Part shown: positions 25,315-53,359 of the stretch, one piece after another
Layout of the letters: the number at the start of each line of letters is the position of its first letter
Numbering within the stretch: position 1 is the stretch's first letter
Assembly (NCBI GenBank): GCA_001599915.1
Contig: BCIG01000002.1
Location: 310,001 to 374,000 of the forward strand
DNA from: Symbiotaphrina buchneri
Lineage: Eukaryota; Ascomycota; Symbiotaphrinales; Symbiotaphrinaceae
Direction of reading: 5' to 3'
DNA: 64,000 bases
Made by a program: the position numbers and the translations under genes
Notes under the pieces: generated by a model
Database searches by the model: none
What the model saw: only the letters and a program-made list of their open reading frames with translations
Told to the model about the DNA's origin: nothing

Positions 25315-26898
25315 ATGCGCTTCCCTAGTGGTGGGTGTCAGACATGTAGGGATCGAAGAATCAAGGCGAGTGGTCCATCCGATGCATTCGTCCGAGGGTG
25401 CCTGGGGGAAGCTGACTAGCTGCCACAGTGCGACGAGACGCACCCAACATGTCAGAGATGCACCAAGTCTGGCCGTATTTGCCACGGTATGAGGCCTCGA
25501 GATGCCTGCTCCGTGGTCCATATCGAGAACTGCTACGCCAGCGGCCACAAGAAGCGGCCTCGAGGGCCGCGTACGAAGCCGACGTCAACGGAGTTCATGT
25601 GCGACCACAAGTCGATTCTACCCCGTGCACTTGTCGATCTGAAGAGCGAAGCAACAGTATATTACCTGACTTGCCACGTGCAGCGACGTGAAGACTTTTC
25701 GGAGCTTTTGACGAGCGTGATGGATGATTTCCTGCATATATGGATGTCGGGAGGGTCGAGTCCACTTGTCGACCTTGCTGTCTCGTCAATGGCTCTGGCG
25801 GTCTTCTCCAAATCAATGAAGTATCCACCTGCGGCCATAGAGGCCTCCATGAACTATCAGCGCCTGTTGAGAGACCTACAAACAACAATCCGGTCTCTGG
25901 ACGCAGGAAATATCGATGCATGCCTGGTTGCGGTTTTCTTCATGGGCCGATACGAGGACACCATATGTAACCCACCTGGACTGAATCCAGGGAAACTTAC
26001 TGATGCGCAGAGCTTCATGCATCATGACGGGTGCTTCGCGCTTCTGAAGATGTGGAAAGAGCGCCTTAGTCATATGTGCCCTGCAACAAATGTTATCAAA
26101 CATGCGAGACGTGGCACGATCCGGTCGGCTCTGATGAGGGGTATTGCGCTGCCGGAATGGATAGAGGATGGTGCTTCCTTCGGTGAGCGTGGGCTGGAGC
26201 TCGAATATGATCGCATCGTGGTGCAAATGACTAGTGCCCGCGCGCGACTGTCCTGCCCGATCAGAGTGAAAGGTATTCAAGGGACATCACCTCATGTGCT
26301 CATGCCAGAAGCAAAAGCTTTCATTACGGAGGTGGAGACACTCGACAATGCCCTAGAGGATTGGAAGGCAATGTTGCCACGGACGTGGTCTTCTCGCCGA
26401 CAGAGTTTATCGCATGATATGTCATTGCCGACAAAAGACATCTATTCTTCTTTCGTCTACACCTACTCCAGCCTTGGACACGCCGCTGTCTGGAATCATT
26501 ACTTCGCCACGAAGATGCTCACCAACAGCACCCCCCTGAACGTTCTGAATATTAGCCCGCCTGACCATAAGGGGTCCCAAGATCAGCAGCATCTGGAATG
26601 CCTCTCGCGCATTAAAACCGTGGCCGACAATATAGCATCCACAATCCCATTCTGCCTGCAAAGAATTACGCTGTCGCCATCTGATCAAAGTGTGATCACC
26701 GCGGCCACGGTCGAGGACATCGAACCACAACTGGCGCGCGGAGTGATATGGCCTTTGACCATCGCTTGCGGGGTCGAAGCTGTGGATACCGAACAGAGAC
26801 GTTGGTTCAAGTCGCAGCTCGCCCGGCTCGGGAGAGCCATTGGTAGTGGAGCGATTGCCTGTGCTGAGATGGACTCGTGGTTCTTCGAGGGTCGATAG
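25315..26898 (+). CDS. Zn2Cys6 transcription factor, cluster regulator candidate
   Basis: Model: join(25315..25365, 25429..26898), 506 residues. The spliced N-terminus gives C8-x2-C11-x6-C18-x6-C25-x2-C28-x6-C35 (SGGCQTCRDRRIKCDE and onward). The intron splits the zinc cluster between IK and CDE, a position often used in such genes. The donor is AAG|GCGAGT, so this is a GC-AG intron; the acceptor is CCACAG. The remainder resembles the C-terminal regulatory region of many fungal regulators of this class, rich in helices. It would act in the nucleus on CGG-containing sites. It lies just upstream of, and on the same strand as, the NRPS-like gene, which makes it a natural candidate pathway-specific activator. 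Confidence 0.88.
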
Positions 26899-27445
26899 GC
26901 GTCGTCCAGTGGAGATGGTAACAAACACTTCGGTCGGCGGACACTGGCGCGCAAAATCCCGACGGCCTACCTGTTACTATGCGGGCGATACTGCGTCGTT
27001 TCTCGCATCTGGAAAGTAGAGTGGAGGGTGCACTCAGAGCAAGGACGAGGTATAGGGAAAAGGTAAAAAGGGGGCTAAAGAACTCAATAATAACCTAGCG
27101 TCTCACGCTTGGGTACGAGAACGCGCTCGGCCCATTCGCCCAGTACTGAGATGCTGGGATGGGACGCCTCATCTCATCTTCTCTTATCTTTGACCTCGGT
27201 TTTGTTTGGGCTTAGGCCTCCACCTTTTCAAGGCAGGATCCCGTTTTGTGGTCGCCGTGGGTTGATAAACGATAGCTCGAAGATGGCAGCTCAAAAAGCC
27301 CGCTAGTTGATGTGTACCTTACTTACCTTACTTTGTAGTCTCAATTGCGTCTCGAGATCTCTACTACTACAAGATTTATTGCAGATATTGGCATAAGGCG
27401 CAATTTGAGGATCCATCAACGCTTCCGAACGGCAAGTCCATCACG
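26899..27445. promoter_or_regulatory. NRPS-like gene promoter with GATA sites
   Basis: 547 bp upstream of the A-T-R gene. HGATAR sites are seen at about 27182-27188 (CTTATCT) and 27263-27268 (TGATAA). A CTTAC-rich patch is at about 27315-27340. No gene is seen. Confidence 0.5.
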
Positions 27446-30400
27446 ATGTCTGTCTTGTCGATGCAACCCCCTGCTTTGGCAAGCAAGCATCTCTACACTT
27501 CCCACAACGAAGCCAAAGCATCACATGCAAAGATCGGCGATGAATATGGCCCACTCTACATCGTCGATGACATCCTACGGGCAACAGCTGCGGAGAAATC
27601 TCAAGTGCCCCTGATAGCATTTCCCAAGTCAGACCAGGGCTTGACGGATTTCGAACACTTCACAGCTCGGGAGTTGAACGACTTTGCGGATACTGGAGCA
27701 AAGTGTTTCATCGACGCCGGGTTGGCTCCTGTGACGGTTCGTATATCCTTCATTTGCTACAAAATCGCTATATGGCATGCTCATATGTCTTCTCAAAGGA
27801 TGCTCCTGTCATCGCCCTCTTGGGTCCTTCGACGTTTGAGTATCTCATCACGATCTTCTCGTTGACGCGATTGGGATACGCGGTTCTCTTTCTGTCGAAC
27901 CGGTTGGCTATCAACGCCTATCTTTCACTCCTTGAGAAGACAGACTGCAACGCCATAGTCTACGCTCCCTCGTTTTCCATCACAGTTGCGCAGCTTGGAA
28001 CTTCGCGGGCACTCACTGCCGTTCCCATCTTGACTCGAGCGCAAATAACTCGCAGACCCAACGACCGCTCTCCACCTTTCTTGCACACCTTGGACCGGGT
28101 CACGCATCATAGCAAAACAGCCTTTATCATCCACTCCTCTGGATCAACCGGCACACCCAAACCCATCTTCCAGACGCACCGCGCCTGTCTCAACAACTAC
28201 TCCGTGGGATCGGGTAAGCGCGCCTTCACGACGTTACCGCTGTATCACAACTTCGGCATCGCAAACACGTACCGGTCGATGTGGAAACGCGTTGAGATTG
28301 CATTCTACAATGCCCGCTTGCCGCAGACATCGCAAATGCTGGCTGAAGTGGTCGACACGGTACGACCCGAGATCGTCCTGGCTGTTCCGTATTCTCTGAA
28401 GCTGCTAGCCGAAAGTGAGAAGGGCCTCCAGGCGCTGAGAAGATGTGAAATGGTCATGTCGGGAGGGAGTGCGTGTCCGGATGCATTGGGAAATCAACTG
28501 GTCGAAGCTGGCGTTAACATCATCGTTCAGTTTGGAGCGTGAGTCACCTCTTGCATTTGCTCTCCATGACCTGTCTGGTGCTGACACTACTCTCAGGACC
28601 GAAGTCGGCCAGGTGATGTCCTCGCAAAGGCCCATCGACGACAAAGTCTGGGACTACATGCGCCTTCCGGCAGAAGCAAAGCCCTTTGTCCTCATGGATC
28701 CGCTCGGAGACGGCGAAACATACGAATGTGTTGTCCTCGACGGGTGGAAGTCAAAGGTGGCGTCCAACTCCTCTAATCCACCCAACTCGTTCCGCACTGG
28801 AGACACCTTCGTTGCCCACGCGTCCATCCCGGATGCATGGAAGCATGTAGGAAGACTCGACGACCGCATCACCCTCGTCAACGGGGAGAAGGTTCTGCCG
28901 CTTCCGATCGAGGGCCGGATCAAGCAGCACCCGGCAGTGCGCGACGCCGTCGTCTTTGGCATTGGCCGCGCCGTGCCAGGCCTGCTTGTGTTTCGCAGCG
29001 GCGATGCCGCAATCCAAGAGCTCAGCGACGGCGAGTTCGTGGAGCGGGTCTGGCCGGCGGTGCAGGACGCAAACTCGCGTTCGGACGCGACGGCGCAGAT
29101 CACCAAGGAGATGATCGTGCCCTCGTCTCGTGATTTCCCACAGACGGATAAGGGGACTTTCATCCGTGCGCGTGTGTATGCCGCGTTCGAGAGAGAGATT
29201 GAAGCAGCCTACGCCGGAATCGAAAGTGCAGACACAGATGGGACTCTCTGCCTGGACATTCCTGAGCTCGAACACTATATCTTCGAAAAACTGGCCGCTT
29301 TGGACGTCACCTTGGGAGATAGCCAGAGCGACTTCTTCGCTGCGGGTGTGGACAGTCTGAAGGAAATCACTGTCTGGGGCCAGACCAAGCGGGACCTAGA
29401 TCTTGGTGGACAGGGAAAGAGACTAGGCCAGAACGTGCTCTTCGAAAAAGCAAATGTGGCTGCGCTGGCAAAGCATTTGTATGCCTTGAGAACTGGACAA
29501 GCGGAAGAAGTGGATGAGACAAATGAGCTTCGGGCCATGGAGGCGTTGATTGAGAAGTACTCCTCGTGCTCTGTACAGAGGCCAAGCAAGCTGCTGTCTT
29601 ATCCTACGAGTCATACAGTTGTAAGTGACCCCTCCAATCATTCAAGGTGATACTAATTTACGTGACCAGGTGCTCACGGGGGCAACTGGCTCTTTGGGAG
29701 CCCATCTAATTGCACAGATGCTTCCTGATCCGTCCATTAGCCGGATTTTCTGCCTTGTCCGCGCTGGAACAGACGCAGAGGCATATTCTCGTGTGCTCTC
29801 CGCGCTATCTTCGCGCGAGCTTCTCCCTGCTTCATCGACCGATACATTCCGCTCAAAAGTCATCTGTCTCGCATCCGACCTCTCCGATCCGGACTTTGGT
29901 CTCACACAAGACGTTCTCAGCACAATGCGAACCACAGCGACCATCATCTTCCACTGCGCCTGGGCCGTCAACTTTGTACTGGGCGTCAACTCCTTCGAAC
30001 CACATCTGGCGGGGCTCCACAACCTGCTTTCCTTCAGCCTCACCTCCCCTTTCCCCTCTCCACCGGCAATGCTCTTCTGCTCCTCCATCGGTGCCGCAAA
30101 CGCTACACCGCGCCCGGCAATCGTACCAGAGACGCGCATCGCCGATCTGTCATACGCACAGAGCACAGGCTACGCACGCAGCAAGCTCGTCGCCGAGCAC
30201 ATCGTGCATGCCCTGGCCCGGCAGGGCGCCAACGCACGTGTGCTGAGGCTAGGCCAGATCGTGGGCGACACCAAAGCCGGGATCTGGAACGACACTGAGG
30301 CGGTTCCCATGATGATCCGAAGCGCCCTTGCTGTCGGCGCGCTGCCCACGTTGGAAGGCGAAGAGAAGCTGCGGTGGATCCCCGTTGACACTGTCGCGAC

Positions 30401-30842
30401 TGTCATGTTGGAGTTGGTGGGCTTCACTTGCGCGGGTCGGGGACTAAGTCCGCAGCAGCTTCTGGAGAGGAATGGTGGCGCAGGCGAGCCAGAACTTGTC
30501 TTTAATGTGCTGAACCCTTCATCGTTGGATTGGGTGGGTGATGTCCTGCCGGCTCTGCGTGAGGCCGGGTTGCGCTTTGAGACGGTGGACACGCGGGAAT
30601 GGCTAAGGCGGCTGAAGGAGGGCGAGCAGGATCCTGAGAAGAATCCTTCGACCAAGTTGCTGGGTTTCTGGGAAGGGAAGTATGGGCAACCGGTCGAGGG
30701 TAAGAGCAAAAAGGGGTCGCTGGAGTGGCAGATGGACGCGCTGCTACAGAAGAGTCAGACGCTCAGGGAGCCGCTAACGGTGGATGTCAAGAAGTTTGCA
30801 CATGTTTGGATGAAGAAGTGGGTTGTTCATAGAGGATCATGA
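27446..30842 (+). CDS. NRPS-like adenylate-forming reductase (A-T-R)
   Basis: Model: join(27446..27736, 27799..28538, 28597..29620, 29670..30842), 1075 residues. Adenylation domain, about 1-560: A3 core SSGSTGTPKPIF near residue 208, A5-type FGATEVGQ near 345. Thiolation domain, about 570-650: FFAAGVDSLKE with the phosphopantetheine serine. Reductase domain, about 686-1075: VLTGATGSLGAHL Rossmann loop, then TGYARSK with the Y-x-x-x-K pair. There is no condensation domain. Such enzymes activate a carboxylic acid with ATP, load it on the carrier and release it with NADPH as an aldehyde or alcohol. The A4 region reads LPLYHNFG and lacks the aspartate that grips an alpha-amino group, so an aryl or other non-amino acid is the likely substrate. 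This is the core enzyme of the cluster. Confidence 0.92.
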
Positions 30843-31654: not shown

Positions 31655-33335
31655 ATGGCAGAAGAGAAGAAGTCCGTGTCGAATAGCGAGGTGACCGATC
31701 AACCCGTCGTGGCAGAGGTCACCGATGTCACCACCCACCCTGTCCAGGGTGAGTCGGAGCTCTCGCGGCAGCTGAGCTCGCGCCATCTGCTCATGATTGC
31801 CATGGGGTCGTCGATCGGTGTTGGGCTCTGGCAGGGATCCGGCACATCACTGGGGAACGGAGGCTCCGCGGCTCTCTTCTTAGGGTAGGTCACACCAAAA
31901 TAACCACCTTGATCTCCTGTCTTACGGATATAGCTACTGCATTGCCGGATCGATTGCGTGGTCTGTCAACCAATGCATCGGCGAGATGGCTATCCTATAT
32001 CCTCTTGCGTCCGCCTTCCCGCAATGGAGTCGGAAGTTCGTGGACATCGCACCTGCTTTCACCGTAGGCTGGGCGTACTGGTTCTCGCACTCGATCATCC
32101 TGGCCACCGAGCTGCAAGGTCTCGTAACGGTCATGAAGTTCTGGACCACTGCCGTTCCCACGGCAGCCTGGCTGTCCATTTTCTTCGTCTGCATCGTGGC
32201 CGTGAACGTCTGCGCCGTCAAGGTCTTCGGAGAGATCGAGGTGGTCATGTCCACGCTGAAATTCTTCTGGATCTTCGTCGTCATCATTGCCAGCATCGTC
32301 ATCTCTGCCGGTGGCGCCCCCAACCATGAGAAGATCGGGTTCAAGTTCTGGGATGAATATGCCTTCACCCACGGCTTCAAAGGCTTCTTGTCCGTCATGC
32401 CAACCTGTATCTTCGCCATGGGTGGAACGGAGATTGGTGGGCTTGCCGCTGCTGAAGCCCGCAATCCCAAGAAATCTGGGCCACGCGCCGTCACGGCCAC
32501 GTGGGTCCGACTTTCTCTTTTCTACATCCTCGGTGCCCTGATGGTGACTATCACCGTCTCGCCAAAGGACAAGAACATCTTCGGGGCCAGCGGGTCCAAC
32601 GCCTCGCCCTTCGTGATCGCGTATCGCAACGCCGGAATCCCCGCCATGGCGCACCTCATGAACGCCATCATCTTCGTCTCCGTGCTTTCGTCTGGCAACG
32701 CCCAGCCGTACATCGCTTCCCGCACGGCTGTGGGACTGTCGCAGATCGGGCTCGCACCACGTTTCTTGCAAAAGTGCGACGCCACAGGCCGCCCTTGGTT
32801 TGCGCTGATTCCCACACTGCTCGTCGGCGGCGGGCTCAGCTATCTGAACGTGAGCAACTCGGGCGCGACCGTCTTCGCCTGGTTTTCGCACCTGACGTCG
32901 CTCTGCACCCTCTTCGTCTGGGGCATGATCTTCCTCTGCCATATCCGCTTCCGCAAAGCCTGGGCCGCCCAAGGTCGCTTGCCGTCCGAGCTACCCTGGA
33001 AGACGTGGACGTATCCCGTCGGCTCGTACTACGGCCTCTGCTGGTGCATTGCGCTGTACATCATCGAGTTCTACCTCGCCGTCTCGCCGCTCACCGGCAA
33101 GCCCTCGGCCAAGAACTTCTTTGCCAACTATATCTCGGCCATTGCGATCTTGTGCTTGTATATTGGCTCCAAGATATATTACCGCGGCCCGTTCTGGATT
33201 AAGGCGCAAGATGTAGATCTCGATACTGGGAGGAGGTATTATAGTGACGACGAGGAAGACGGTGGAGAGAAGTTGGGATTCAAGAATATAATCCCGAAAA
33301 CCCTGGCGCTTGTTACGGGAGAGTCCAAGTTCTAG
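31655..33335 (+). CDS. Amino-acid permease (fungal YAT/APC superfamily)
   Basis: Model: join(31655..31884, 31934..33335), 543 residues. The N-terminal tail is cytosolic and acidic. It then has SRHLLMIAMGSSIGVGLWQG, the characteristic first helix of fungal amino-acid permeases. Further signatures are GGTEIGGLAAAEARNPKK and SSGNAQPYIASRTAVGL. About 12 hydrophobic segments are visible. The tail YYSDDEEDGGEK is acidic. The 49-nt intron is canonical and restores FLGYCIAGS. Known relatives bring amino acids across the plasma membrane with protons. Inside the cluster it may supply a precursor or move a product or intermediate, but it could also be a neighbour by chance. Confidence 0.9.
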
Positions 33336-33578
33336 ACATGGCGGTTGGTAGATGGAGACGGATTCATGCGTGGTTGATGGCAGAGTGTGTGAGATATATA
33401 GATGTTGATTGCCTTGTATTTTTGTGCGACTTCAATAGTTTGTATCAAGGAGAGCAGTTATTTTATTCCCACGAAGTCAAACTTTAGAATTTCGTGCATA
33501 GTCAATGACAGCCAAAAAGTCCCAGAAGACGCAAGTGAAAAATCGATTGAACTAGCTAAAAGAGCGACAAGATAGAGT

Positions 33579-34592
33579 TCACTTTGCTGCAACAAGCCTT
33601 CCCATCGAATGACGATGCTCAATCCAGTCCTTGACAGTCCTCACCGGTCGACCCGTAACACAAGAAACCGGCGGTTCGCGTCTCACCGCACCTTCCACAC
33701 CATCCAAGACCTCCAACAGCGTATCTTCATTCGGGTGGCAGAAATAGACAATCGTGAAACGTTCCTTGTTAGTCTCCTCGGGCCGGGGCGAGCGGGACAC
33801 ACGGTGGAGGGTGCTCTTCATGACACCTCCAGACAGAAACGTCATTGTCTCGCCGATATTGATGAGCACTGTGCCCGGGATTACGGGCGCATCGAGCCAG
33901 ACCTCGTCGTCCTGCACGGGCCCGCTGTACCGCGGCGGGCGCACCTGCAGGCCCATGATCTGATGCTGGTACAGCACGGTGATGATGCCATGGTCCGTAT
34001 GCGACGCCAGCCGCACCGCGGCGTCATCGTCCGGCGGGAGCGCGGGGTAGTGCAGGAAGCGCAGACTGGCGACGGAGGGTTTGTCGTAGGCGTGCAGCGC
34101 CGGTAGGCGGTCGGCGCCCAGCCCCAGCGCGACCGAGAGGCAGGCCAGCACGCGCACCGCGATCTGCTCGTGGGTTTCTTTGAGGAACTCCTGGATCTTG
34201 GGCTGCACTTTCTTCAGGCTGGGCGGCAGCGGCTGGTCGTATGAGTTTTGCTTGCGGAAACTGAAGATCTCTTTTGGGTCCGCGCTGCTGGTACGGTCCG
34301 ACCCACCGTGCTCTTTGAAGTACGCGGCCGTGCCTACCTGTGCGTCGTAGCCGGCGTTGTAGATGCTGCTCCACTTGCAGGAGTCCTTCTCGGCTTGTGG
34401 TGTTTTGTTGAAGAAGTCATCCGAGATGGAGAAGGCTTGGTCGATCAGATCTTGGGCCACCCCGTGGTTCTTCAAGTACAGGAATCCCCATGTCTCCAAG
34501 ACTTTCTTGATCTCTGCTGATACTCCCTCGAAGTCGGTGGTGAACCTTGAGAAGTCGATGACTGGTATCTCTTCCTGGTTGACGGCTGCCAT
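33579..34592 (-). CDS. 2-oxoglutarate/Fe(II)-dependent dioxygenase
   Basis: Intronless, 337 residues from the ATG at 34592 (MAAVNQEEIPVIDFSRF). An in-frame ATG at 34727 adds a hydrophobic 45-residue leader that family members lack, so the shorter start is preferred. The DIOX N-terminal domain (VIDFSRF, WGFLYLKNHGV) is followed by the double-stranded beta-helix with iron ligands H188 and D190 (SHTDHG) and H253 (STLHRVSRSP), and the 2-oxoglutarate arginine R268 (ERFTIVYF). It resembles isopenicillin-N-synthase/gibberellin-oxidase-type enzymes. In the cluster it could hydroxylate, desaturate or cyclise the released product. Soluble, cytosolic by sequence. Confidence 0.9.
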   Translation of the reverse strand: MAAVNQEEIPVIDFSRFTTDFEGVSAEIKKVLETWGFLYLKNHGVAQDLIDQAFSISDDFFNKTPQAEKDSCKWSSIYNAGYDAQVGTAAYFKEHGGSDRTSSADPKEIFSFRKQNSYDQPLPPSLKKVQPKIQEFLKETHEQIAVRVLACLSVALGLGADRLPALHAYDKPSVASLRFLHYPALPPDDDAAVRLASHTDHGIITVLYQHQIMGLQVRPPRYSGPVQDDEVWLDAPVIPGTVLINIGETMTFLSGGVMKSTLHRVSRSPRPEETNKERFTIVYFCHPNEDTLLEVLDGVEGAVRREPPVSCVTGRPVRTVKDWIEHRHSMGRLVAAK

Positions 34593-40447: not shown

Positions 40448-40645
40448 CTCCGCAGAGAAGGCTGCAAGTTACCGATGTTTGACAGCAGCAGCGCAAGAAG
40501 TCTTCACTGGGGAAGGATGTTTCAAGGACGTTTGAGCGGTCAAGCGTGGCGTGGCAAAGGTCGAGAAACAGTCCTGGCTGGTGTTGTTGAACATACTAGT
40601 GGCCGAGAGGTGCTTCTTGGGAGGCTTCTTGCTTCGGTGCTTTCC
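40441..40645 (+). repeat. Dispersed repeat family, copy A
   Basis: About 205 bp that match, at an estimated 75-80% by eye, the reverse complement of 51653-51861. Shared islands include GGCTGCAAGTTACCGATGT, GCGGTCAAG, GAACATACT and TTGCTTCGGTGCTT. The copy starts at the stop codon of regulator 2 and so supplies its 3' untranslated region. I do not recognise the element. One frame keeps the peptide EHTxxREVLLG in both copies, hinting at a former coding origin, but this may be chance. Confidence 0.7.
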
Positions 40646-40769
40646 TTCAGAGGGAACTGTGTGTTCCAATAGATTCCAGTTACTTGCTTCATGCCGTTTC
40701 TAGCCAAACCTGCGGCTGTTCGACATCGTCAAGAAGCCTCCCAAGGAGCACCTCTCGGCCACTAGTATG
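40592..40769. repeat. Inverted repeat (about 40-bp arms, about 98-bp loop)
   Basis: Left arm 40592-40631, beginning CATACTAGTGGCCGAGAGGT; right arm 40730-40769, ending CCTCTCGGCCACTAGTATG. The arms are reverse complements with one visible mismatch. The left arm is part of repeat copy A and the right arm is an extra inverted fragment of it. Together they could form a long fold-back stem. Confidence 0.85.
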
Positions 40770-40835
40770 TTCCAATAGATTCCAGTTACTTGCTTCATGC
40801 CGTTTCTAGCCAAACCTGTGGCTGTTCGACATCGT
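40662..40835. repeat. 68-bp direct repeat pair flanking an inverted fragment
   Basis: Units 40662-40729 and 40768-40835, both starting TGTTCCAATAGATTCC and ending CGACATCGT, are identical except for one C/T difference. The 38-bp spacer is the inverted arm described separately. The near identity indicates a recent duplication, compatible with template switching during replication or repair. Confidence 0.9.
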
Positions 40836-41593: not shown

Positions 41594-44500
41594 ATGACGC
41601 ACGATCCTGAAGCCGCCACCACAGCTACGGCCAAAGGCTCAAAGCGTCGCGGTAAATGGCTCCGCAACCCGCTGCGATGGAAAACGTACCCTGTGCCGAC
41701 GGAGCGCGGCGTCAGCAGGGAGACGTCCGCCAACTGGTTCAGCCAGCTGTACTACATCTGGATCAACCACCTGATGCTAGTGGGCTACAACCGGCCGCTA
41801 GAGCTCAATGACATCCCGCAGCTCCCCGAGACCCGGCGCGTCGAGGGAATCACCGAGAAGATCTCGAGAGAGCTTCAACGTCGAGCGGCGCGCGGCGACA
41901 AACATGCCCTCATTGGCGCCATCAACGGCGTCTTCTTCTGGGAGTTCTGGCTCGGCGGGCTGTCGATCCTGGTGGCGAATATGAATATGGTTCTGTCGCC
42001 GCTGTTACTGAAGTACATTATCCTATATGCGTCGGACGCTTATTACGGCCAACCTGCGCCGATCGGTAAGGGCGTGGGGCTGGTGCTGGGCATGGTGGCC
42101 ATGCAGGTCATTGGGACTTGTGCTATCAACCAGGGTTTCTACCGCGCGATGATGGTGGGCGCCATGGCGAGGTCGAGCTTGATTTCGATGATTTACACAA
42201 AGAGCCAGACGATATCCGCTCGGGCCAGAGTAGGCGGTGTCGAAGAGGAGTTGGATGAAGATGAAGATGGCGGGAAGGACAAAGGGGAAAAGAGCGATGC
42301 AAGGAAGAAGCGACATGCTCGAAAGGCCAAAGAGGACAACAGCGAGCCCGGTTGGTCCAATGGAAAGGTATCCAACCTGATGAGTAGCGACACGTACCAC
42401 ATCGACCAGTCGTGCCGCTTCTTCCATATTCTCTGGACAATCCCGTTGCAGATCGCTGTTCTTCTCGTCCAATTATTGATTAACATCGGGCCGAGCGCGC
42501 TGGTAGGATTCGGAACGCTGGTCGGAGTCTCGCCTGCCCTGTTTTTTGCTGTCAAGTCCATGGCCAAGAGGAGAGGCAAGGCCAACAAGGTCACCGACAG
42601 ACGGATCGGATTGACCCAGGAGATATTGCAAGCGGTGCGCTTCGTCAAATATTTTGCTTGGGAAGAGAGTTTCCTTGACGAGTTGAGGGCATTGCGAAGG
42701 AAGGAGGTCAAGTCAATACAGTTTCTACTGGGTATTAGAAGCGCCCTCAACGCAGTTGCTATGGTATGTAATGCCTATCCCACATTCCTAGACAGAACCA
42801 ACTACCGCCACCCCGTTTGGCAGGAACATTTGGGTACATCAGACAATATTAACGTATGATATCTATCAGGCACTACCGATCCTCGCCTGCGTATTCGCAT
42901 TCATGTGTTACGCGCTCACACACAAGGGCTTCTCCGCAGCCGAAGTCTTCTCTTCCTTCGCTTTGATGAACGCTTTGCGCATGCCATTGAACCTTCTGCC
43001 CCTCGTCATTGGCCAAGTCATTGACGCTTGGATCAGCTTCGACCGGATTCAGGAATATCTGCTCGCGGAACACGAGAAGGAGAAACGTGAAGTTGACCCT
43101 GAGTGTGACAACGCGTTTGAGATTGTCTCTGCTAGCTTCACCTGGGAAACGGCTACACTGCCCGAAAAGTCTGCGGAACCCGACAATAAGGGGTCTTCAA
43201 AGGTTGCTCCTTCCGCGGTCGCAGTGACGTCGTCGGCGACCCAGGAGAAGGCTTCCTCAGAGAGGCAGGATGAGAAGGCCGCCGGCTCGGGCCAGAAGCC
43301 TTTCTCCATTGACAACTTCAATCTGACGATATCCCGAAACGAGCTTCTGGCGGTCGTCGGGACTGTCGGCAGCGGTAAAACGTCGCTGCTAGCAGCCCTC
43401 GCAGGCGAAATGCGCATGACAGGCGGCATGCTCCGCCAGGGTTCCGCAATGGCCTACTGTCCTCAATACTCGTGGATCCAGAACGCTACCGTGCGGGACA
43501 ACATCGTGTTCGGGCAGGCGTTCGACAAGCAGTGGTACAGCCGGGTCATCGACGCCTGTGCCCTGCGACCGGACTTGGACATGCTCCCGGACGGCGATCA
43601 GACCGAGGTCGGCGAGCGCGGCATCACGCTGAGTGGCGGACAGAAGCAGCGCATCGGGATTGCCCGCGCGGTCTATTTCAATGCGGATATCGTGTTACTT
43701 GATGACCCGCTGAGTGCGGTGGACGCTCATGTTGGCAGGCATATTTTTCAGGAAGCGATCAAGGGCCTGCTGGATGGTAAGTGCAGGGTTCTGGCTACCC
43801 ACCAGATGCATGTCCTAAGCCAGTGTGATCGGATCCTGTGGATGCAGGATGGTAAGATCGAAGCGGTCGGCACGTATGATGACCTCTTGGCTACACATGC
43901 GGGCTTCATGGAAATGGTCTCTCGCTCAGCTCAAGCCAAAGAAAAGAAGACTGAAGATCCCTCCGAGGACGACGGCGAAGAAGAGGAGCAGGATGACATC
44001 GACGATGCTATCGATGAGAAAGAGGCCGTTGAGACAGGCTCGTTGAAGCAGGTCGTCTCCACGCGCTCGGGGAAATCCCACGAGACTACTCGCCAGGATC
44101 CTTCCAAGCTTATGACCAGTGAGGAAAAGGCAGAGAATGGGATCTCCATCGGTGTGTACTGGGAGTATATCAAAGCCAGCGGTAGCGTCCTTTTCGCGCC
44201 CCTCGTTCTGATAACGTGCTGTCTTGCGCAGACGGCTCAGCTGGTTGGGACCGTGTGGCTGAGCTATTGGACTGCGGGGCGGTATAACGTGTCCACTGGT
44301 GTCTACGTAAGTCAGACTCCGGACCGCGGAGTCTTTCATGGACCACTCCTCCTCAAACCTTTCAGCAGCTGCTTGTTGAACGGGTCGTCTCTGACTCACT
44401 CTTCAACAGATCGGTGTTTATGCCGCAATGGGCGTTGCACAAACCTTCTTCTTGTTTATATTTGGGTTCAGTCTCACAATTGGAGGTACAGAAGCTAGCA

Positions 44501-46350
44501 AAAAGCTCCTACATCGTGCGATGCAGCGAGTCCTTGGAGCACCAATGTAAGCACCTCCCCCCTTTAGATAGCTCTTTCCCTTTCCGCTAATTGCCCTAAC
44601 CACAGGTCATTCTTCGACACCACACCGCTCGGACGGATCATCAACCGGTTTTCCAAGGACGTAGACACCATGGACAGCTTTCTAACCGAGTACATGAGGC
44701 AGTTCCTCATAACAGTGGCAATTGTTTCTGGAATCTTCATTCTTATCATCGTATACTATCCTTGGGTAAGCATTCGGCTCTCTTTCCCGCCTCCGAAAAG
44801 CCCTCTTCGCCAAACGTGCTAATGCCCACAGTTTGCATGTGCCCTGGTCCCGCTGAGTATCCTCGTCTACTTCGCCGCCTCCTTCTACCGCGCCTCCGCC
44901 AGCGGCCTCAAGCGACACGAGGCCGTGCTGCGCTCCAGCGTCTTCTCGTGCTTCGGCGAAGCGCTCTCTGGCAACGCCGCCATCAAAGCATACGGCGTGC
45001 AGGGGCTATACCGGCGCAAGCTGGACGCGGCGCTCGACAACATGAACTCAGCATACTTCCTGACATTCCCATGCCAGACGTGGCTAAGCACGCGACTGGA
45101 CCTGATCGGCTGCGTGCTCGCGCTGGTGATCGGGCTTCTCGTGGTCTCGAACCGGCTGCACGTGAACCCCAGCACCGCCGCGCTGGTGCTCAGCTATATC
45201 CTGCAGGTCATCGGCCAGGTGCAGTTCATGGTGCGCCAGCTGGGCGATATGGAGGGCGCGATGAACTCGACGGAGCGAGTCCTGTATTATGGCAGCGACC
45301 AGATGCCGTCCGAAGAAGAGCGTGCTGTCGCTGTGAGGAGCCGTAGGGGCAAACAGCCCATGCCGCAGAAGCCAACCCAGGGCTGGCCGGCGTTTGGAGG
45401 AATTGTATTCCGTGATGTGCAGATGCGCTATCGCGAGGGCTTACCGCTGGTGCTCAAAGGGTTGGACCTGGATATCAAGCCGGGCGAGAGGGTGGGCATC
45501 GTGGGCCGGACTGGCGCGGGGAAATCTTCGATTACGTCGTGTCTGTTCCGGCTTGTGGAGCTGGATTCTGGCCGGATCGAAATCGACGGGGTCGATATAG
45601 CTGATCTTGACCTGAAGAGCTTGAGGCGTGCCATGACTATCATTCCACAAGGTAAGTTGAGCGCCAATGTCTCCATTGCATCTTCCAATAGCTCATCTCA
45701 CCTTCTCTCTTGCAGACCCGACACTCTTCCAGGGCACCATCCGGAGCAACCTCGACCCCTTTGGCGAGCACACAGATTTGGAGCTGTGGAGCGCGCTCCG
45801 AAAAGCCCACCTCGTACCTCCTGCCGGCGAGACGACCTCCAGCCTCACCGCAGACGAGAAGACTACCCCGACATCCACAACAGTGCCCGACGAAATCAGC
45901 ACTCCCCAGCGATCAACGAGCAACTCCATCATCGCACCCCCGTCCGACCCCCCAGACTCCTCCTTTCAACCCACCGGCCCAAAAATAACGCTCGACAGCC
46001 CCGTCGAAGAGCAAGGGCTCAACTTCTCTCTCGGGCAGCGGCAGCTGATGGCTCTAGCGCGGGCCCTCGTCTCTCAAACACGGATCCTCATCTGCGACGA
46101 AGCGACATCCTCGATCGACGAGGCGACGGACCGCAAGGTGCAGGAGACACTGCAGACGGCGTTCCCGGGCTGCACCGTGCTGTGCATCGCGCACCGCCTG
46201 CGCACGATTGTGAAATATGACCGCGTGCTGGTGATGGACCAGGGCAGGGTCGCGGAGTTTGATCCCCCGTTGAAGTTGTGGGAGAGGGAGGATAGTGTTT
46301 TTAGAGGGATTTGTGATAGGAGTAAGATTAGGAGAGAGGATTTTTTGTAA
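41594..46350 (+). CDS. MRP-type (ABCC) ABC transporter
   Basis: Model: join(41594..42763, 42870..44306, 44410..44546, 44606..44765, 44832..45651, 45716..46350), 1452 residues, full length for a YOR1-like ABCC protein. Layout TMD1-NBD1-TMD2-NBD2. NBD1 has GTVGSGKTS (Walker A), LSGGQKQR (signature), ADIVLLDD (Walker B, with aspartate in place of the catalytic glutamate) and LATHQ (H-loop). NBD2 has GRTGAGKSS, FSLGQRQL, RILICDEATSSID and CIAHRL. An acidic, Lys-rich insert follows TM segments in TMD1 and another acidic linker joins NBD1 to TMD2. An extra Ser/Thr/Pro-rich insert of about 60 residues (45840-45990) interrupts NBD2 before the signature. It is likely an exporter of cluster products or conjugates at the plasma or vacuolar membrane. 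Confidence 0.93.
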
Positions 46351-46587
46351 ATGCCGCATAGGGGGGTGGCAAGGCTGGGTTTGGGATGTTGGTGTTATGT
46401 TCTAGCATTCCTGGTATGATACACATATAGAAATACATTTATCGAAACTGAAGATGCTGTTGCTGATAGCATTCATGTTGCCGCGCATGATCCATCTACA
46501 AGATAGAGATTCAACAAATCACACTGATTCATCATGGGAGTGAGATATATACGCCGAACTCCGGCTCCAACACAGCTCCAACGCAGC

Positions 46588-48467
46588 TCACTCTTTTGGC
46601 CCATCCACAACCGGTTCCGGCACCGGCGGGAAATCCACCTTATCCAAATAATAACTAACATCCCCCTTCTCTTTATCCGCCACCGTCCACCCATCACCAA
46701 GCCACTCCATCAGATCCTGTCCCGGCACGCGCTGCCACTCAAAGTCTTCCCAGCGCGGGTGTTCCAGCGCCTTGCGGGCATGCAGACTACTCCCGGGCCA
46801 CAATCCGACAACCTTATGATCCCTCTCGCCCGCCTTATACCAACTCGTGCACTCCCCAACATGGACCGTGCGAGGGAAGTACGCAGCACAGTAGCGCTCC
46901 CAGCTCTTCAGCGCGCTCTCTTTCACCTCGAGGCTTTTGAGGTGCTCCCGCGCGAGCTTCTGCACGGCTTTCACGATGTACCCGATGAGCGACTCGAAGA
47001 TGATGAGGAGTGACCCGCCGCCGGTGGCGGAGTTCGGCCCGCCGATGATGAAGTAGTTGGGAAAGCCGGGGACGGAGTGCGACATGTACGCGCTGGCGCT
47101 GGCACCGTCCGCCCAGCGTGTGTTGAAGGTGGCCCCGTTCCGGCCGGTGATGGGGAAGCGCGGCATGTGTGAGGTGTCGAAGCCCGTGGCGCAGGCGATG
47201 GCGTCGACGCGCGTGCTGGTGCCGTCGGCGGTTATGATGGACTAGAGTAGAGCTTCGGTCAGTTGTGACACATAGCGGGAAAAGCAGCTGAGCCTGCTGC
47301 GATGCCCTGAGGGGAGGGAGGGGCCACGTACATCCTCCGTCACTCTAACGATAGGCGTCTTGACGAAATGCACATTATCCTGGACCAGCGCCTCGAGATA
47401 CCCCGGGCCGGGGGTAAGCCTTCGACAGCCCGGCAAGAACTTCGGCCTCAGCGCGTCGAAGATCTCCGGCTTGCGGGCGAGCTTGCGCCGCATATTCTCC
47501 TCCATACGTTGCATCCCCGAGACTTGCTCGGGCGTGCCGGGGAACAAGCACGGGTGGTCCATGTTGATCCACCGCTCCATCTCCTTGCGATACCGCCAGT
47601 AATGGGCCGGGTCGCGCGCGAACCGCGCGAGCTCCTCCGCCGAGTACGTGTAGTTCCCTGACTCGGTGTCGCCGGCGATGGCGGCCTGCGTGAACGCGCC
47701 CCCGAACGGCTCGCTGACCCAGGTGCGCCCGCGCACGTAGTTGTAGACGTTCGCGGCGCTGCGTTGGAGTTGAGGCAGGATCTGGATCGCGGATGAGCCG
47801 CATCCGATCAGCGCGACGTCCTGGCCTGCCCAGTCCCTGGATGGAAGCACCGGTGTCAGCGCGGATAGCAGTCGTATTTTCGGGGGCAGCACAGCACGTA
47901 CCAGTTCTCATCCCAGTTCGCCGAGTGCAGCAGCTTGCCCTTGAAGTCCTCCAAGCCCTCAATGTCCGGATACTTCCACTTATTCAAGATCCCGCTCGCA
48001 TTAACCAGGACCTCCGCGTGCTCCTCGCTCCTTCCCTCCCCGCTCCTCTCCGTCGTCACACACCACACGCCCCTCTCCTCATCCCATCTCGCACCCACCA
48101 CCTCCGTCCCAAACCTCACCTGCTCCTCAACACGAAACCGCCTCGCCACGGCACGCACATACTCCAGTATCTCGGCACCGGGGGCAAAGAACCGGCTCCA
48201 CTGCGTGTTCGGCGCAAACGTGTACTGGTACACATGGCTGGGGATGTCGCACGCTACACCCGGGTATCGGTTCTCGAACCATGTCCCGCCCACCCCGGCG
48301 TTCTTCTCGATGATGGTTAGTTGGGCGGAGGGAATGTATTGGCGTAGTCGGATGTACAGCCCGATCCCGCTGACGCCCGCGCCGATGATGAGGACCCGTA
48401 GAGGGCGCGGTGAGTCGATTGCGCGCTCTTGGAGGTGGAAGGTGGGAGAGGTGGGGAGAGAGCCCAT
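46588..48467 (-). CDS. Baeyer-Villiger-type flavin monooxygenase (BVMO 2)
   Basis: Model: complement(join(46588..47241, 47332..47836, 47902..48467)), 574 residues. G29-x-G31-x-x-G34 (LIIGAGVSGI) binds FAD; GGTWFENRYPGVACDIPSH follows; the BVMO fingerprint is FKGKLLHSANWD; the second Rossmann motif is ALIGCGSSAIQIL; and ACATGFDTSHMPRF is in place. Introns of 65 and 90 nt are canonical; joins restore DENWDWAGQD and VTEDSIITADG. It resembles BVMO 1 in layout but has only three exons and is clearly divergent, so the two are not a recent tandem copy. The 3' end converges on the ABC gene with 237 bp between stops. Confidence 0.92.
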
Positions 48468-49025: not shown

Positions 49026-51216
49026 CTAGAGTCTAGCAGTATCCGATGTTTCCTCAAGTATCTTCTGCGCACACTTCAGCCCAGTCAGATAGGCGTTAAT
49101 CTGCGTATGATTGCTGCTCCCCCAAAAAAAGATTCATCAGCCATCTTCCCCATCAAAAGCTCCCATACTCCCAAAGAAACATAAACATACCTCGTCAGCA
49201 CCGGACAAACACTAAGATCCGCGACCCTCAACCCCCCGACGCCACGGATCTTAAACGCCTTATCCACCACCGCCATCGCATCCCCGTCGCGTCCCATCTT
49301 ACACGTCCCCACCGCATGCAGTCCCTGCTTTACATTCTCCCTAACCCACCTTCTCAGAACCTCCTCATCCAGGCTCTCCAGATCCAGCTTCTCCACTCCT
49401 CCCATCTCATCCCATGGCCCAACCAACGTCCCCCTTAAAACGCCGCTGTAGCGCCGCGTCTGCGCCACGACCAGCAACATGCGCAGCGCCTCGACCGCCA
49501 TGCGCATATCGTATGCGTGCATCAGGTACTTCGGATCAATCCGTGGCGGCTGCTTCGGGTCCGCGCTGCCCAGCCGCACGCTGCCGCGCGAGAGGCAGTT
49601 CTGCAGCAGCACCTCGTGGGCGATGATGCTGGCAGAAGCGTCCAATGCCGGGCCGGCGTGGTACAGTGGCCCGGACATCAGCCAGTACTCGGCACCGGGC
49701 CGCGAGGGCGCGCGCAGGAACGATTGCGTGCTGGATGGCAGCGCGAGGAATTCGGCGGAGCGGAAGAGGCGCGGGAGACGTGGGCAGGCGATGGCGGAGG
49801 CCCCGCCGTACTGGATGAGTGGGCCGCTGAGAGAGGCGGTGTATTGTTCTTCGGCGGCGCGCTGCAGGGCGGGAGAGTGTAGGAGGTGGTTGTAGCTGGG
49901 GATTGATGGGTCTTGGTAGTACTCGCATGAGAAGATCAGATGGCTGTTAGCTAGTCAGCGACAAGTAGCAGTATCGGCGAGGCAGGGTGATGTTACTCTT
50001 GCAGCCCCTGACCTACACCTGGCACATGCGCGACGAGCGGTATATGATGCTCCTCCAGATGTGCTGCATCACCCACGCCAGACAGCATCAGCAGCTGCGG
50101 ACTGCCAAATGTGCCTGCCGTAAGCAGCACTTCCCTGCCAGCCTTGAATATACTCATTTTACTCGGGTCTTGCAGATCGTACACCTGCACCCCCGTTGCT
50201 GTGGTGCCCTCGAACAGGATCTTCGAACACATGACCCCCGTCACAACCTTCAATTTGCCCTCCGCTTCGTACTGCTTCCTAAGCTCCTCGGGGAGGAATG
50301 CGGCGGTGGCGTTGATCCGCACGCCTTTGGCGCAGTTGAGTTGCGCTACGGAGACGCCGATGGGGTTGCCCGAGTTGTGATCTGGGTTTAGGGGCATCCC
50401 GGCCTCGATGCACGCATTGATGAAGTCCAGTGATCCAGGCAGCGCTTCGCGGCCGGGGCCGACGCTGATTGGGCTGTGTGTCTCGTCAGCACTAAGACGG
50501 TATCAGGTCGTCTAGAGGGGAGGAGTGCAGACCCTTGGTAGCCATGGTCGCCCTTGTCGAAGGCTGTATACGGCCTCAACTCAGGAGCCACGTACTCCTC
50601 AAACGTCTCGAGCTGTTACCACTTCATCAGTCCAGCTCTCCCCCAACCCAGACGTCCACCAAGCTCCGCCGCACATAAAACCCGCTTACACCTACTCACC
50701 ATCTTCATATCCTCCCTAACCCTCTCCCACTCCCACCCCTCATCGCCCACGCGCCTCGCCCACTCATCCCAATCATTCGCCGGCCCTCGCACCCAACTCA
50801 TGAAATTCAACCTACTGCTCCCGCCCAGTCCACTCCCACGGTGTCCCTCCAGCACGCGCCCGCCCAGCGCCTCCTGCGGCTCCGTGCGATACGGCCAGTT
50901 GCTGTCTGTCTCCAACAAGTGCAGGAAGTGGCCTGGGATGTTATCTTCCGCAGAGACCGCGTTTGTCGGCCCGCGCTCGAGGAGAAGTACGGACCGCCCG
51001 TGCTGGAGGAGAGTGCTGGCCAGGACTGTGAGGTGGGGCGGTTAGTTGAGACTTTGGCCGGGGGGAGAGGGGAGAGGGGGAAGGGTAAGGACCGCATCCT
51101 GATGTCCCGCCTGTGAGCTGCGTTAGCGTGGCTGTTGTTGTGAGAAGGGGAGTGGAGGAGGGAGAGCGTGTCTTGCCTCCGACGATTATGTATTCGAACG
51201 CTGGTTCTTGAGCCAT
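49026..51216 (-). CDS. GMC oxidoreductase (FAD-dependent; choline dehydrogenase/aryl-alcohol oxidase-like)
   Basis: Model: complement(join(49026..49113, 49191..49943, 49997..50473, 50533..50612, 50700..51025, 51093..51110, 51177..51216)), 593 residues. The N-terminus reads YIIVGGGTSGC, the GMC Rossmann loop; then LLLERGP, HRGSGLGGSSRLNFM (GMC signature 1 region) and LTAGTFGSPQLLMLSGVG (signature 2). The catalytic HAVGTCKMG histidine and the distal SNHTQ pair are present. The first intron has a GC donor (GGAG|GCAAGA), and the second exon is only 18 nt but is needed for GGTSGC. There is no signal peptide, so it is probably intracellular, unlike secreted lignin-type members. In the cluster it would oxidise an alcohol or dehydrogenate an intermediate. 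It is divergent from the SDR at 52283. Confidence 0.9.
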
Positions 51217-52282
51217 GTGCGGCGCCGGAACGAACTTTCTCTGAGAACACGTAAATGTCCCCCGCGGATTTGAGAGTTTGCCTACAGTGAGCCGTGCCTT
51301 GCGCATCCAGTTGGTGATTACTTAGGGCTATAACACAGTATAGTCCTGGCTTGTTCCAAGAGGCGGGACTGCCGCCGCCGCCGACGGACGACCGCTGGAC
51401 CCGCCGCTTATCGAAGATTGCCGCAGTGCTGTCCCCCTCTCTCACTGCGCGGCATCCAGCGTCTTATGAATACGCCATACAAGTCCTACACCACCTGACT
51501 TCAGTGCGTCCATGAGCGTACACCACTCGATGGGCAATTATCTATGACAATCTGTATTGTTATTGGGGATAATCTGAAGATGTTTCTAGGCAATGCCGAC
51601 GAGGTGGAAATGCAATAGAGAGACAGCCCAAAACAAAAAGACACAATTTTGAACATAAGCACCGAAGCAAAAATGGCGCCCAAGAGCACCTCGCGGTGAC
51701 CAGTATGTTCGAGAGTGCCAGCCAGCACTGTTCTTCAACCTTTCTTTGCCAGACTCTCCTTGACCGCTTAAATGTCCTTGGAAGGTCCTTCCTCAGTGAA
51801 GAGCTCTTGAGCTCCGCTATCAGACATCGGTAACTTGCAGCCTTGCCCGCGGAGCACATCCTGATTGACAAGGGGTCTAGGGATACCGAAATCGAGGACG
51901 AGGGTTGTATGATAGAATCAGGAAGCACAACGCTGAATGTCCATTCTGTATCGCAACAAGGTCGACTGCATATATTTAGAAGTTTGATACACCATTCGTT
52001 CAGCGCATCTTGTTTGGCCAGCCCGGCTTCCGACATTCACAATCCTGGGTCCCTTTGCGGGGTCCATCAACGCTAAAGGTGGAGAACTTACCCCGCGGGG
52101 ATTTCGGGGAGATGCGAGTGCCCCACTCCACCTAGCTTGGCTGCCCTGCATTCCCTGCAGGGTGTTCTGCAACATCACCAGAGGTCCAGAGTCCAGCGTA
52201 GACTTGAATAAGCTCGCCATCCCTGCACTCCGTTCATCTCGCGCAAACGACCCGAGACCGCCACCGGATTCTTAGCTACAAC
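51217..52282. promoter_or_regulatory. Divergent region, GMC oxidoreductase / SDR
   Basis: About 1.07 kb holding the promoters of two cluster genes and repeat copy B (51653-51861). A GC-rich block (CCGCCGCCGCCGACGG, about 51371) and GATA-type sites at 51408-51413 and 51538-51543 lie on the GMC side. Confidence 0.5.
51653..51861 (-). repeat. Dispersed repeat family, copy B
   Basis: Inverted relative to copy A at 40441-40645. The two align along about 205 bp with scattered substitutions and small indels; homology fades beyond both ends. With copy A it brackets the ABC exporter, BVMO 2 and GMC genes. Confidence 0.7.
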
Positions 52283-53359
52283 ATGGCCAGCACGAAGCGC
52301 CCCGACCTCCACGGCGACGTCTACGACGCGATCGATCCCAAGAACTTCGTCGGCGCGTTCAAGGGCCAGCTTGTGGCTGTGACGGGATCTGGTCGAGGTG
52401 CGTATGCTGTTCACTCTTTGATGCCTCTCGCAATACTCTGGCTGTATCAGTCGTTGATTTGATATGCGGCTTTAGGAATCGGACGAGCGATAGCGCACTC
52501 CTTCGCGCGAGCGGGCGCCGACGTAGCCGCGCTGGACTTGAGCGCCGATAACCTGGCGGAGACGAAGGCGCTGTGCGAGAAAGAAGGCGTGCGCTGCGGG
52601 ACGTACGTTCTGGACGTGACGGATTTCCAGGCGGCGAAGAAGATTGTGGGGGAGATTGCAGAGAAGCAGGGCGAGATCCAGTACGTTTCCGAGAGACACA
52701 TGTCATGCGTTAGTGAAGAAGGAGAAGCGGACTGACGCCAGGAAAGTGTGCTGGTCAACTGCGCGGGCGGAAACCGCCGCCGACCCTTCCACATGGAGGA
52801 TTTCGAGCTGTGGTGGAAAGACGTCGAGATCAACGCCAAAGGGGTGCGCCGCGCCGACTCTCTCCTCTTCACCCATCCCTCGTCCCCTACGCAGCAGTAG
52901 CAGCAGTAGCCGTAGCTAACCCTCCCTCCCATCTCACAGGCCTTCGCCCTAACCTCCCTCGTCCTCCCATCAATGCGCGCCCGCGGCAGCGGGTGCATCA
53001 TCCAAATCGCCTCGCGGGCCGCCACCGTCACGACGGCGTTCACCTCCGCGTACTCAGCGGGCAAAGCCGCGCTCGTACGCGGGACATCCAGCATCCAGCT
53101 CGAACTAGACATGGACGGCATCGACGTACATACCTACTGTCTGCACCCCGGCGGCGTGCGGACGGCGCTGGCGCGGCCGATTGATGCGGATGTGGCGGCG
53201 CGGTATCCGGAATGCGCGGAGATGTATAGGGATTTGCAGCAGAGAATGACGGACTCGCCGTATTTGTGTGGGCAGACGTGTGTGTTTCTGGCGAGCGGCA
53301 GGGCGAAGGTGCTGAAGGGACGGTATTTTGATTGCGAGCAGGTATCAAGCAGGTTGTAG
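52283..53359 (+). CDS. Short-chain dehydrogenase/reductase with altered C-terminus
   Basis: Model: join(52283..52397, 52476..52680, 52747..52843, 52940..53359), 278 residues. TGSGRGIG cofactor loop, LDVTDF, VLVNCAGG, IASRAATV strand and YSAGK (Y-x-x-x-K) are all present. The intron 52681-52746 uses the AG in GGAAAG, which restores GEIHVLVNCAGG. The open frame ends at 53359 shortly after FDCEQ, but a frame offset by one base continues with IKQVVEGGEVVREEGLY to GGMILNELGKV (stop about 53469). That is a more typical SDR tail, so a one-base loss near 53343 has probably replaced the last 40 or so residues. Catalytic residues are untouched, so activity may survive. Confidence 0.8.

What the first reader, a model, noticed from the sequence alone, without database searches (positions are those of the whole stretch)
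25315..53359. Unrecognised specialised-metabolite cluster around an A-T-R NRPS-like enzyme
One 28-kb block holds an A-T-R enzyme, two Zn2Cys6 regulators, an amino-acid permease, a 2OG/Fe(II) dioxygenase, two BVMOs, an MRP-type ABC exporter, a GMC oxidoreductase and an SDR. Nearly all genes carry complete motifs and clean introns. The combination of two BVMOs with GMC, 2OG dioxygenase and a reductive NRPS-like core does not match a cluster I can name. The likely chemistry is reductive release of an activated acid followed by several oxygen insertions.
Basis: partly seen in the sequence, partly recalled or inferred. Interest (0 to 1): 0.8.

Follow-up and report, generated by a model that had tools for sequence, protein, structure and literature searches.

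The report
Fungal carboxylate-reductase and oxidase gene block
Ten neighbouring fungal genes, centred on an enzyme that probably turns an acid into an aldehyde and surrounded by oxidising enzymes, an exporter and two regulators, look like an uncharacterised small-molecule pathway of an ordinary kind, but nothing yet shows that all ten work together.

Summary
In detail: all ten named genes are present in the stated order, each confirmed by profile matches. Two details need correcting. Two introns are GC-AG, and the SDR's 3' end is frame-ambiguous. The A-T-R protein carries, by motif, the five residues reported essential in the Neurospora carboxylate reductase, plus three fungal-specific marks. 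It is best read as a fungal carboxylic acid reductase (acid to aldehyde), not a chain-building NRPS. No PKS, multimodular NRPS, terpene synthase or P450 appeared among 39 proteins and ORFs scanned. Cluster unity is unproven: no fungal genomes were available for synteny, and regulator-site tests gave nothing beyond chance. New evidence is a ~205-nt noncoding repeat (165 of 199 aligned bases identical) upstream of both the ABC and GMC genes, inverted on the chromosome and bracketing ABC-BVMO2-GMC. It may mean shared regulation, a past rearrangement or a mobile-element relic. Verdict: a credible uncharacterised biosynthetic or oxidative locus, new member of a known kind. The ten-gene pathway is a hypothesis; two adjacent modules remain a serious rival.

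The parts
25315..26898 (+). Zn2Cys6 regulator 1 (506 aa; exons 25315-25365, 25429-26898; GC-AG intron)
   Evidence: Zn_clus 3.5e-07, Fungal_trans_2 19.6 bits just under its cut-off of 21; six-cysteine motif at residue 8
27446..30842 (+). A-T-R NRPS-like enzyme / fungal carboxylic acid reductase (1075 aa; exons 27446-27736, 27799-28538, 28597-29620, 29670-30842)
   Evidence: PF00501, PF23562, PF07993; reductase domain to 8aep E 8.6e-41; catalytic residues by motif against PMC5826065 passages
31655..33335 (+). amino-acid permease (543 aa; exons 31655-31884, 31934-33335)
   Evidence: AA_permease 2.2e-113; TIGR00913 447 bits, below its curated cut-off of 579
33579..34592 (-). 2OG/Fe(II) dioxygenase (337 aa, intronless)
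   Evidence: PF03171 and PF14226; best solved relative thymine dioxygenase 5c3p E 1.6e-32; HTD at 198, RFT at 278
35389..37477 (-). BVMO1 (572 aa, 7 exons)
   Evidence: FMO-like; steroid monooxygenase 4ap1 E 1.9e-54; FRGKLLHSARWD fingerprint at 194
38088..40447 (+). Zn2Cys6 regulator 2 (743 aa; exons 38088-38606, 38678-39142, 39200-40447)
   Evidence: Zn_clus 8.8e-07, Fungal_trans 5.6e-09
40440..40642 (+). copy 1 of a ~205-nt repeat, upstream of the ABC gene (its first 8 nt overlap the end of the Zn2Cys6-2 gene)
   Evidence: 165 of 199 aligned bases identical to copy 2, 10 gap positions
40589..40835 (.). local rearrangement: 43-nt inverted pair (40589-40631 / 40730-40772, 98%) and 71-nt direct pair (40659-40729 / 40765-40835, 97%), able to form a long hairpin
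   Evidence: DNA fold of 40440-40850, z-score -7.4 over 100 shuffles
41594..46350 (+). ABC-C (MRP-type) transporter (1452 aa, 6 exons)
   Evidence: two ABC_membrane and two ABC_tran stretches; ABCC structures as best matches; TIGR00957 MRP 881 bits, below its cut-off of 1470
46588..48467 (-). BVMO2 (574 aa; exons 46588-47241, 47332-47836, 47902-48467)
   Evidence: FMO-like; phenylacetone monooxygenase 1w4x E 1.3e-55; FKGKLLHSANWD at 175
49026..51216 (-). GMC oxidoreductase (593 aa, 7 exons, one GC-AG intron)
   Evidence: GMC_oxred_N 2.5e-39, GMC_oxred_C 9.7e-29; alcohol oxidase 8rpf 1.1e-66, aryl-alcohol oxidase 3fim 4.4e-57, patulin synthase 8bxl 9.6e-54
51657..51861 (-). copy 2 of the ~205-nt repeat, in the GMC/SDR intergenic region, same orientation relative to GMC as copy 1 to ABC
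52283..53359 (+). SDR (exons 52283-52397, 52476-52680, 52747-52843, 52940-53359); 3' end frame-ambiguous
   Evidence: adh_short 1.9e-45; TGSGRGIG, NCAG, YSAGK; frames

Best explanation
This is an accessory small-molecule locus of a filamentous fungus. Shown by sequence: ten adjacent genes, with an A-T-R carboxylic acid reductase as the only acid-activating enzyme found, two regulators, an amino-acid permease, an ABC-C transporter and five further redox enzymes. Inferred: the A domain adenylates a pre-formed, probably non-amino (aryl or alkyl) carboxylic acid, the T domain carries the thioester, and the R domain releases an aldehyde with NADPH. The GMC oxidase and SDR adjust alcohol/carbonyl state. 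The BVMOs insert oxygen next to an aldehyde or ketone, giving formate esters or lactones. The 2OG enzyme hydroxylates or oxidises C-H bonds, and the ABC-C protein exports or sequesters the product. One or both Zn2Cys6 proteins switch the genes on. That all ten belong to one pathway is inferred from adjacency and function only.
For: Ten contiguous genes with gaps of 237-1146 nt, all metabolic, transport or regulatory. Two divergent pairs each share one upstream region: BVMO1/Zn2Cys6-2 and GMC/SDR. The reductase has the NcCAR-essential residues H237, E433, S595, Y844, K848 at H247, E441, S597, Y853, K857 by motif, and the fungal marks K after GE, DKGT and a catalytic Ser. In the A-domain search, 18 of 19 solved sequences at E 1e-5 or better are CoA-ligase-type proteins (feruloyl-CoA synthetase 1.8e-11, anthranilate-CoA ligase 9e-11, benzoate-CoA ligase 7.3e-08); one is an NRPS A domain, 6ea3, 1.5e-08. 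A ~205-nt repeat is shared by the ABC and GMC/SDR upstream regions: score 175 against 19-28 for the other 27 of 28 region pairs.
Against: No synteny or expression data. CGG-N4-CGG sits in 7 of 8 upstream regions (expected 2.9, p 0.003), but is one of 48 patterns tried, and the seven flank regions gave a comparable best p of 0.007. Two regulators rather than one. The flanks also hold metabolic genes (SDR 21206-22293, MFS carriers, a sulfatase, a broken PLP-enzyme gene), so the borders are not sharp. No gene to make the acid was found. The substrate inference is weak: NCBIfam gives an amino-acid adenylation model 73 bits and an o-succinylbenzoate-CoA ligase model 76, both far below their cut-offs.
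Confidence: 0.5

Rival explanations
1. Two neighbouring modules: Zn2Cys6-1, A-T-R, permease, 2OG (25.3-34.6 kb) as one pathway, and BVMO1, Zn2Cys6-2, ABC, BVMO2, GMC, SDR (35.4-53.4 kb) as a separate oxidative detoxification, catabolic or export module under Zn2Cys6-2.
For: Each half holds its own Zn2Cys6 gene. BVMO1 shares an upstream region with Zn2Cys6-2. The inverted ~205-nt repeat lies only in the second half and brackets ABC-BVMO2-GMC. BVMO + GMC + SDR + MRP-type transporter fits xenobiotic oxidation equally well (inference).
Against: The gap between the halves, 796 nt, is not the largest in the block (1146 nt and 1066 nt lie inside the second half). GC3 ranges of the halves overlap (0.60-0.77 and 0.68-0.81).
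Confidence: 0.33
2. An accessory-gene island in which unrelated catabolic, transport and secondary-metabolism genes happen to lie together, with no shared pathway.
For: Flanking genes are also transporters, hydrolases, an SDR and a broken PLP-enzyme gene. Repeats and a local rearrangement show that the region has been reshuffled.
Against: An acid reductase, two BVMOs, a GMC enzyme and an ABC-C transporter within 28 kb, with no other modelled gene between them than regulators, permease, 2OG and SDR.
Confidence: 0.17

Closest known systems
Fungal carboxylic acid reductases (NcCAR, AtCAR/ATEG_03630, PnlA)
   Same: A-T-R layout, essential H/E/S/Y/K residues by motif, fungal-specific K, DKGT and Ser marks, R domain nearest to solved chain 8aep
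   Different: Clade and substrate not assigned; the PnlA paper says clade VI members are found with an NR-PKS (PMC9605436, part 2), and none was found here
Clusters built on an A-T-R enzyme alone (LnaA/LnbA, herquline-type; from passages of PMC8403587 and PMC9605436)
   Same: An A-T-R gene can be the only core of a fungal cluster
   Different: Those named enzymes reduce amino acids (L-Tyr for LnaA, LnbA, HqlA); the substrate here is unknown and probably not an amino acid; a BVMO pair was not seen in the passages read
Type I Baeyer-Villiger monooxygenases (phenylacetone, steroid, cyclohexanone monooxygenases)
   Same: FxGxxxHxxxW fingerprint and first GxGxxG; E about 1e-54 to 1e-55 to solved members
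   Different: Fingerprint ends in D where many bacterial members have P (recalled); substrate unknown
GMC alcohol oxidases (8rpf, aryl-alcohol oxidase 3fim, patulin synthase 8bxl)
   Same: Both GMC domains, HAVGTC and NHT motifs
   Different: Substrate unknown; cluster context not compared
Thymine dioxygenase-like 2OG enzymes (5c3p)
   Same: Near full-length match, HxD and RxT
   Different: Only distant (116 bits); function not implied

Membership tests
Fungal carboxylic acid reductase (A-T-R) | Adenylation, thiolation and thioester-reductase domains in one chain | tested here: met
   PF00501, PF23562 and PF07993 in order; the T domain only by its GVDSL motif, no Pfam carrier-domain hit at 0.001
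Fungal carboxylic acid reductase (A-T-R) | Residues essential in NcCAR (H237, E433, S595, Y844, K848) | tested here: met
   H247, E441, S597, Y853, K857 by motif; list from passages of PMC5826065. Full NcCAR was not held for alignment
Fungal carboxylic acid reductase (A-T-R) | Reduces a carboxylic acid to an aldehyde | not testable with these tools
   needs enzyme assay
Clade VI aryl-acid CAR with partner NR-PKS | NR-PKS gene nearby | tested here: not met
   no ketosynthase among 39 proteins/ORFs scanned; only the 64-kb window was examined and not every short ORF
Amino-acid reducing CAR (clade I) | Acidic residue that holds the substrate amino group (recalled) | tested here: inconclusive
   core stretch reads LPLYHNFG, no Asp after the His; not aligned to a known amino-acid A domain at this place
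Type I BVMO | FxGxxxHxxxW[P/D] fingerprint | tested here: met
   both proteins, PDB matches
Type I BVMO | Flanking Rossmann motifs and the second GGxWxxxxYPGxxxD signature | tested here: met
   first GxGxxG in both; second Rossmann (GAGSTA, GCGSSA) and GGTWLENQYPGCACD / GGTWFENRYPGVACD read by eye in the sequences. My typed pattern for the second signature found nothing because it was one residue too long
Fungal biosynthetic gene cluster | Adjacent genes for core enzyme, tailoring, regulation, transport | tested here: met
Fungal biosynthetic gene cluster | Co-regulation or conserved co-occurrence | tested here: inconclusive
   regulator-site patterns not beyond chance after 48 patterns; shared ~205-nt repeat in two upstream regions; synteny not testable

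The most novel reading that the evidence does not exclude
A complete, undescribed pathway that uses a stand-alone carboxylic acid reductase, with no PKS, multimodular NRPS, terpene synthase or P450, to turn a primary-metabolism acid into an aldehyde that two different BVMOs, a GMC oxidase and a 2OG dioxygenase then oxidise. It would have been assembled by rearrangement of two modules, with a ~205-nt repeat now carrying shared regulation to the transporter and oxidase promoters.
Probability: 0.2. Interest if true: 0.55.

Novelty: new member of a known kind. Interest (0 to 1): 0.35.

Why it matters
Of the seven clades of fungal acid reductases in PMC9605436 (parts 1 and 2 read), two had no characterised member in 2022, and many such genes are not tied to a product. 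A CAR locus without a polyketide partner but with two BVMOs would be a good place to find the natural role of a stand-alone CAR and new oxidative chemistry. The shared repeat gives a concrete, testable handle on how such loci are put together.

Tried and rejected
Own-genome search: no whole genome is held, so paralogue counts and copy number of the repeat could not be checked. Prokaryote genome scan with the A-T-R protein: 19 pattern matches, none a relative; it does not bear on fungi.

Promoter tests: paired CGG/CCG triplets with spacers of 0-15 (48 patterns, 300 shuffles) gave a best p of 0.003 in the eight cluster regions and 0.007 in the seven flank regions; not accepted as co-regulation. 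Shared 8-mers: four found in 4 of 8 regions, not pursued as sites; no gapped 4+4 palindrome was in 4 or more regions. GC3 does not mark the block off from its flanks. Rfam: no match at gathering score. tRNA: none, bacterial settings. Dinucleotide ratios show no clear RIP (thresholds recalled), and 3 of 34 differences between the repeat copies are RIP-like.

Recent tandem duplication of the BVMOs was rejected: 39% identity, different introns. The first automatic A-T-R model lacked its N-terminal exon and skipped the GATGSLG motif; it was rejected after looking at the frames. An earlier gene-finder setting over-called introns and was dropped whole. Structure prediction was not run: single-sequence models would be weak and no alignment of relatives was available.

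Organism: not identified. MIBiG, antiSMASH and fungal genomes are not on hand.
Full report
What was checked. The window is eukaryotic (introns, Zn2Cys6 regulators) and its genome is not held. A home-made gene finder gave first models (an earlier setting, over-called introns and was dropped). Weak junctions were refitted by eye from the translated frames. Pfam confirms each family (nine, the ABC protein).

Gene order: Zn2Cys6-1 (+), A-T-R (+), permease (+), 2OG (-), BVMO1 (-), Zn2Cys6-2 (+), ABC-C (+), BVMO2 (-), GMC (-), SDR (+). Gaps are 237-1146 nt. BVMO1/Zn2Cys6-2 and GMC/SDR are divergent pairs. Of 29 introns in these models, 27 are GT-AG and two are GC-AG (the Zn2Cys6-1 boundary was off by three bases there, was corrected, and its six-cysteine motif is read). 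The SDR core is intact, but its end is not clean. An alternative intron would delete a conserved-looking stretch. The claim 'nearly all genes carry complete motifs' therefore holds with this one exception.

The A-T-R enzyme. The reductase domain's best solved relative is 8aep (E 8.6e-41), deposited as an acetyl-CoA synthetase-like protein; that it is the N. crassa CAR reductase domain is recalled. Passages of PMC5826065 give NcCAR residues H237, E433, S595, Y844 and K848 as essential. By motif these are H247, E441, S597, Y853 and K857 here. The same passages list marks of fungal CARs: Lys after Gly-Glu, a hydroxylic residue replacing the usual A10 Lys with a Lys two residues earlier, and a catalytic Ser. 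The sequence has NGEK, DKGT and SSIGA. This makes it a fungal carboxylic acid reductase by sequence. The mapping is by motif, because the full NcCAR sequence was not held. In a search with the A domain alone, 18 of 19 solved sequences are CoA-ligase-type proteins and one is an NRPS A domain; the LPLYHNFG stretch has no Asp after the His. Both point weakly to a non-amino substrate. NCBIfam does not decide: an amino-acid adenylation model scores 73 bits and an o-succinylbenzoate-CoA ligase model 76, both far below their cut-offs.

Context from the literature. Parts 1 and 2 of 5 of PMC9605436 describe 84 fungal CARs in seven clades: clade I amino-acid reducers, clade II aminoadipate reductases, clade III with NcCAR, clade V mainly basidiomycete, clade VI aryl-acid enzymes paired with NR-PKS genes, and clades IV and VII without a known member. 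Clusters built on an A-T-R enzyme alone are already known: passages of PMC8403587 name herquline-type pathways. No ketosynthase, condensation, terpene synthase, prenyltransferase or P450 domain appeared in 39 proteins and ORFs scanned with Pfam, some overlapping (10, 9, 10, 10). Not every short ORF or flank model was scanned, so a very fragmented gene could have been missed.

The other enzymes. BVMO1 and BVMO2 carry the type I fingerprint and match steroid and phenylacetone monooxygenases. They share 39% identity. My typed pattern for the second BVMO signature found nothing because it was one residue too long; by eye both proteins have it (GGTWLENQYPGCACD, GGTWFENRYPGVACD). The GMC protein is nearest to alcohol oxidases, aryl-alcohol oxidase and patulin synthase. 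The 2OG protein is distantly related to thymine dioxygenase. The ABC protein is ABC-C/MRP type. The permease is of the amino-acid permease family. The SDR is a classical short-chain dehydrogenase with no specific assignment.

Is it one cluster? For: adjacency, function mix, divergent pairs. Against or open: two regulators, metabolic genes on both flanks, no synteny or expression data. The regulator-site test does not survive the number of patterns tried, and the flanks gave a similar best value. GC3 does not mark the block.

New observation. Comparing the eight upstream regions pairwise, 27 of 28 pairs score 19-28, while the ABC and GMC/SDR regions score 175. They share about 205 nt at 40440-40642 and 51861-51657: 165 of 199 aligned bases identical, 10 gap positions, 78% over the gapped BLAST alignment. 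Both copies point toward the gene named (ABC, GMC), so on the chromosome they are inverted and bracket ABC-BVMO2-GMC. Copy 1 begins at the very end of the Zn2Cys6-2 gene, and copy 2 also lies upstream of the SDR. A profile from the two finds one further part-copy below E 0.01, the inverted arm at 40730-40775. Next to copy 1, a 43-nt inverted pair at 98% and a 71-nt direct pair at 97% show a recent local rearrangement with strong hairpin potential. There are 21 transitions, 13 transversions and 3 RIP-like changes between the copies. Candidates are a relic of a mobile element, a duplicated regulatory segment, or the scar of an inversion. The genome-wide copy number that would decide could not be measured.

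Literature search. Ten full-text searches were made. Two returned nothing; one search listed 20 of 371 matches, one search listed 16 of 17. The closest term set, NRPS-like + Baeyer-Villiger + gene cluster, gave 12 papers. I saw their titles and abstract beginnings, and passages of one, PMC8403587, where the BVMO belongs to a cytochalasin PKS-NRPS cluster and A-T-R genes are discussed separately. None of the listings describes this gene combination. That is absence from these searches in open-licence papers, not proof that it is unpublished.

Conclusion. The most likely reading is an uncharacterised fungal small-molecule locus built around a stand-alone carboxylic acid reductase: new member of a known kind. 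The unity of the ten genes is about as likely as not. The two-module rival is strong, and the chance-island rival is weaker.

Noticed in passing
22366-23690 (-): PLP-dependent enzyme gene (PALP family; closer name by eye only) whose collinear Pfam pieces (profile 4-81, 82-117, 139-294) lie in different frames, with an in-frame stop after the second piece: probably a pseudogene or a sequence error.
   Followed up: partly
40440-40835 and 51657-51861: Shared ~205-nt repeat in inverted orientation plus a local hairpin-forming rearrangement beside the first copy.
   Followed up: partly
58187-58283 and 58806-58902: 97-nt direct repeat, 82% identical, 619 nt apart; the ORF over the second copy has no Pfam match.
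   Followed up: no
9580-11010 and 11437-13386 (+): Ankyrin-repeat ORF followed by a third Zn2Cys6 regulator-like stretch (Zn_clus 2.1e-08 in ORF 11437-11910), in the lower-GC part of the window (46-52%).
   Followed up: partly
   Followed up: partly
54088-54420 (+): Small 110-aa ORF with coding-like composition; no Pfam match for the ORF that holds it.
   Followed up: no
1-3583, 13702-17203, 55438-56784, 61580-61975: Ordinary flank genes: GH16 protein with DUF7908, transaldolase, sulfatase, sugar transporters, GH76.
   Followed up: partly
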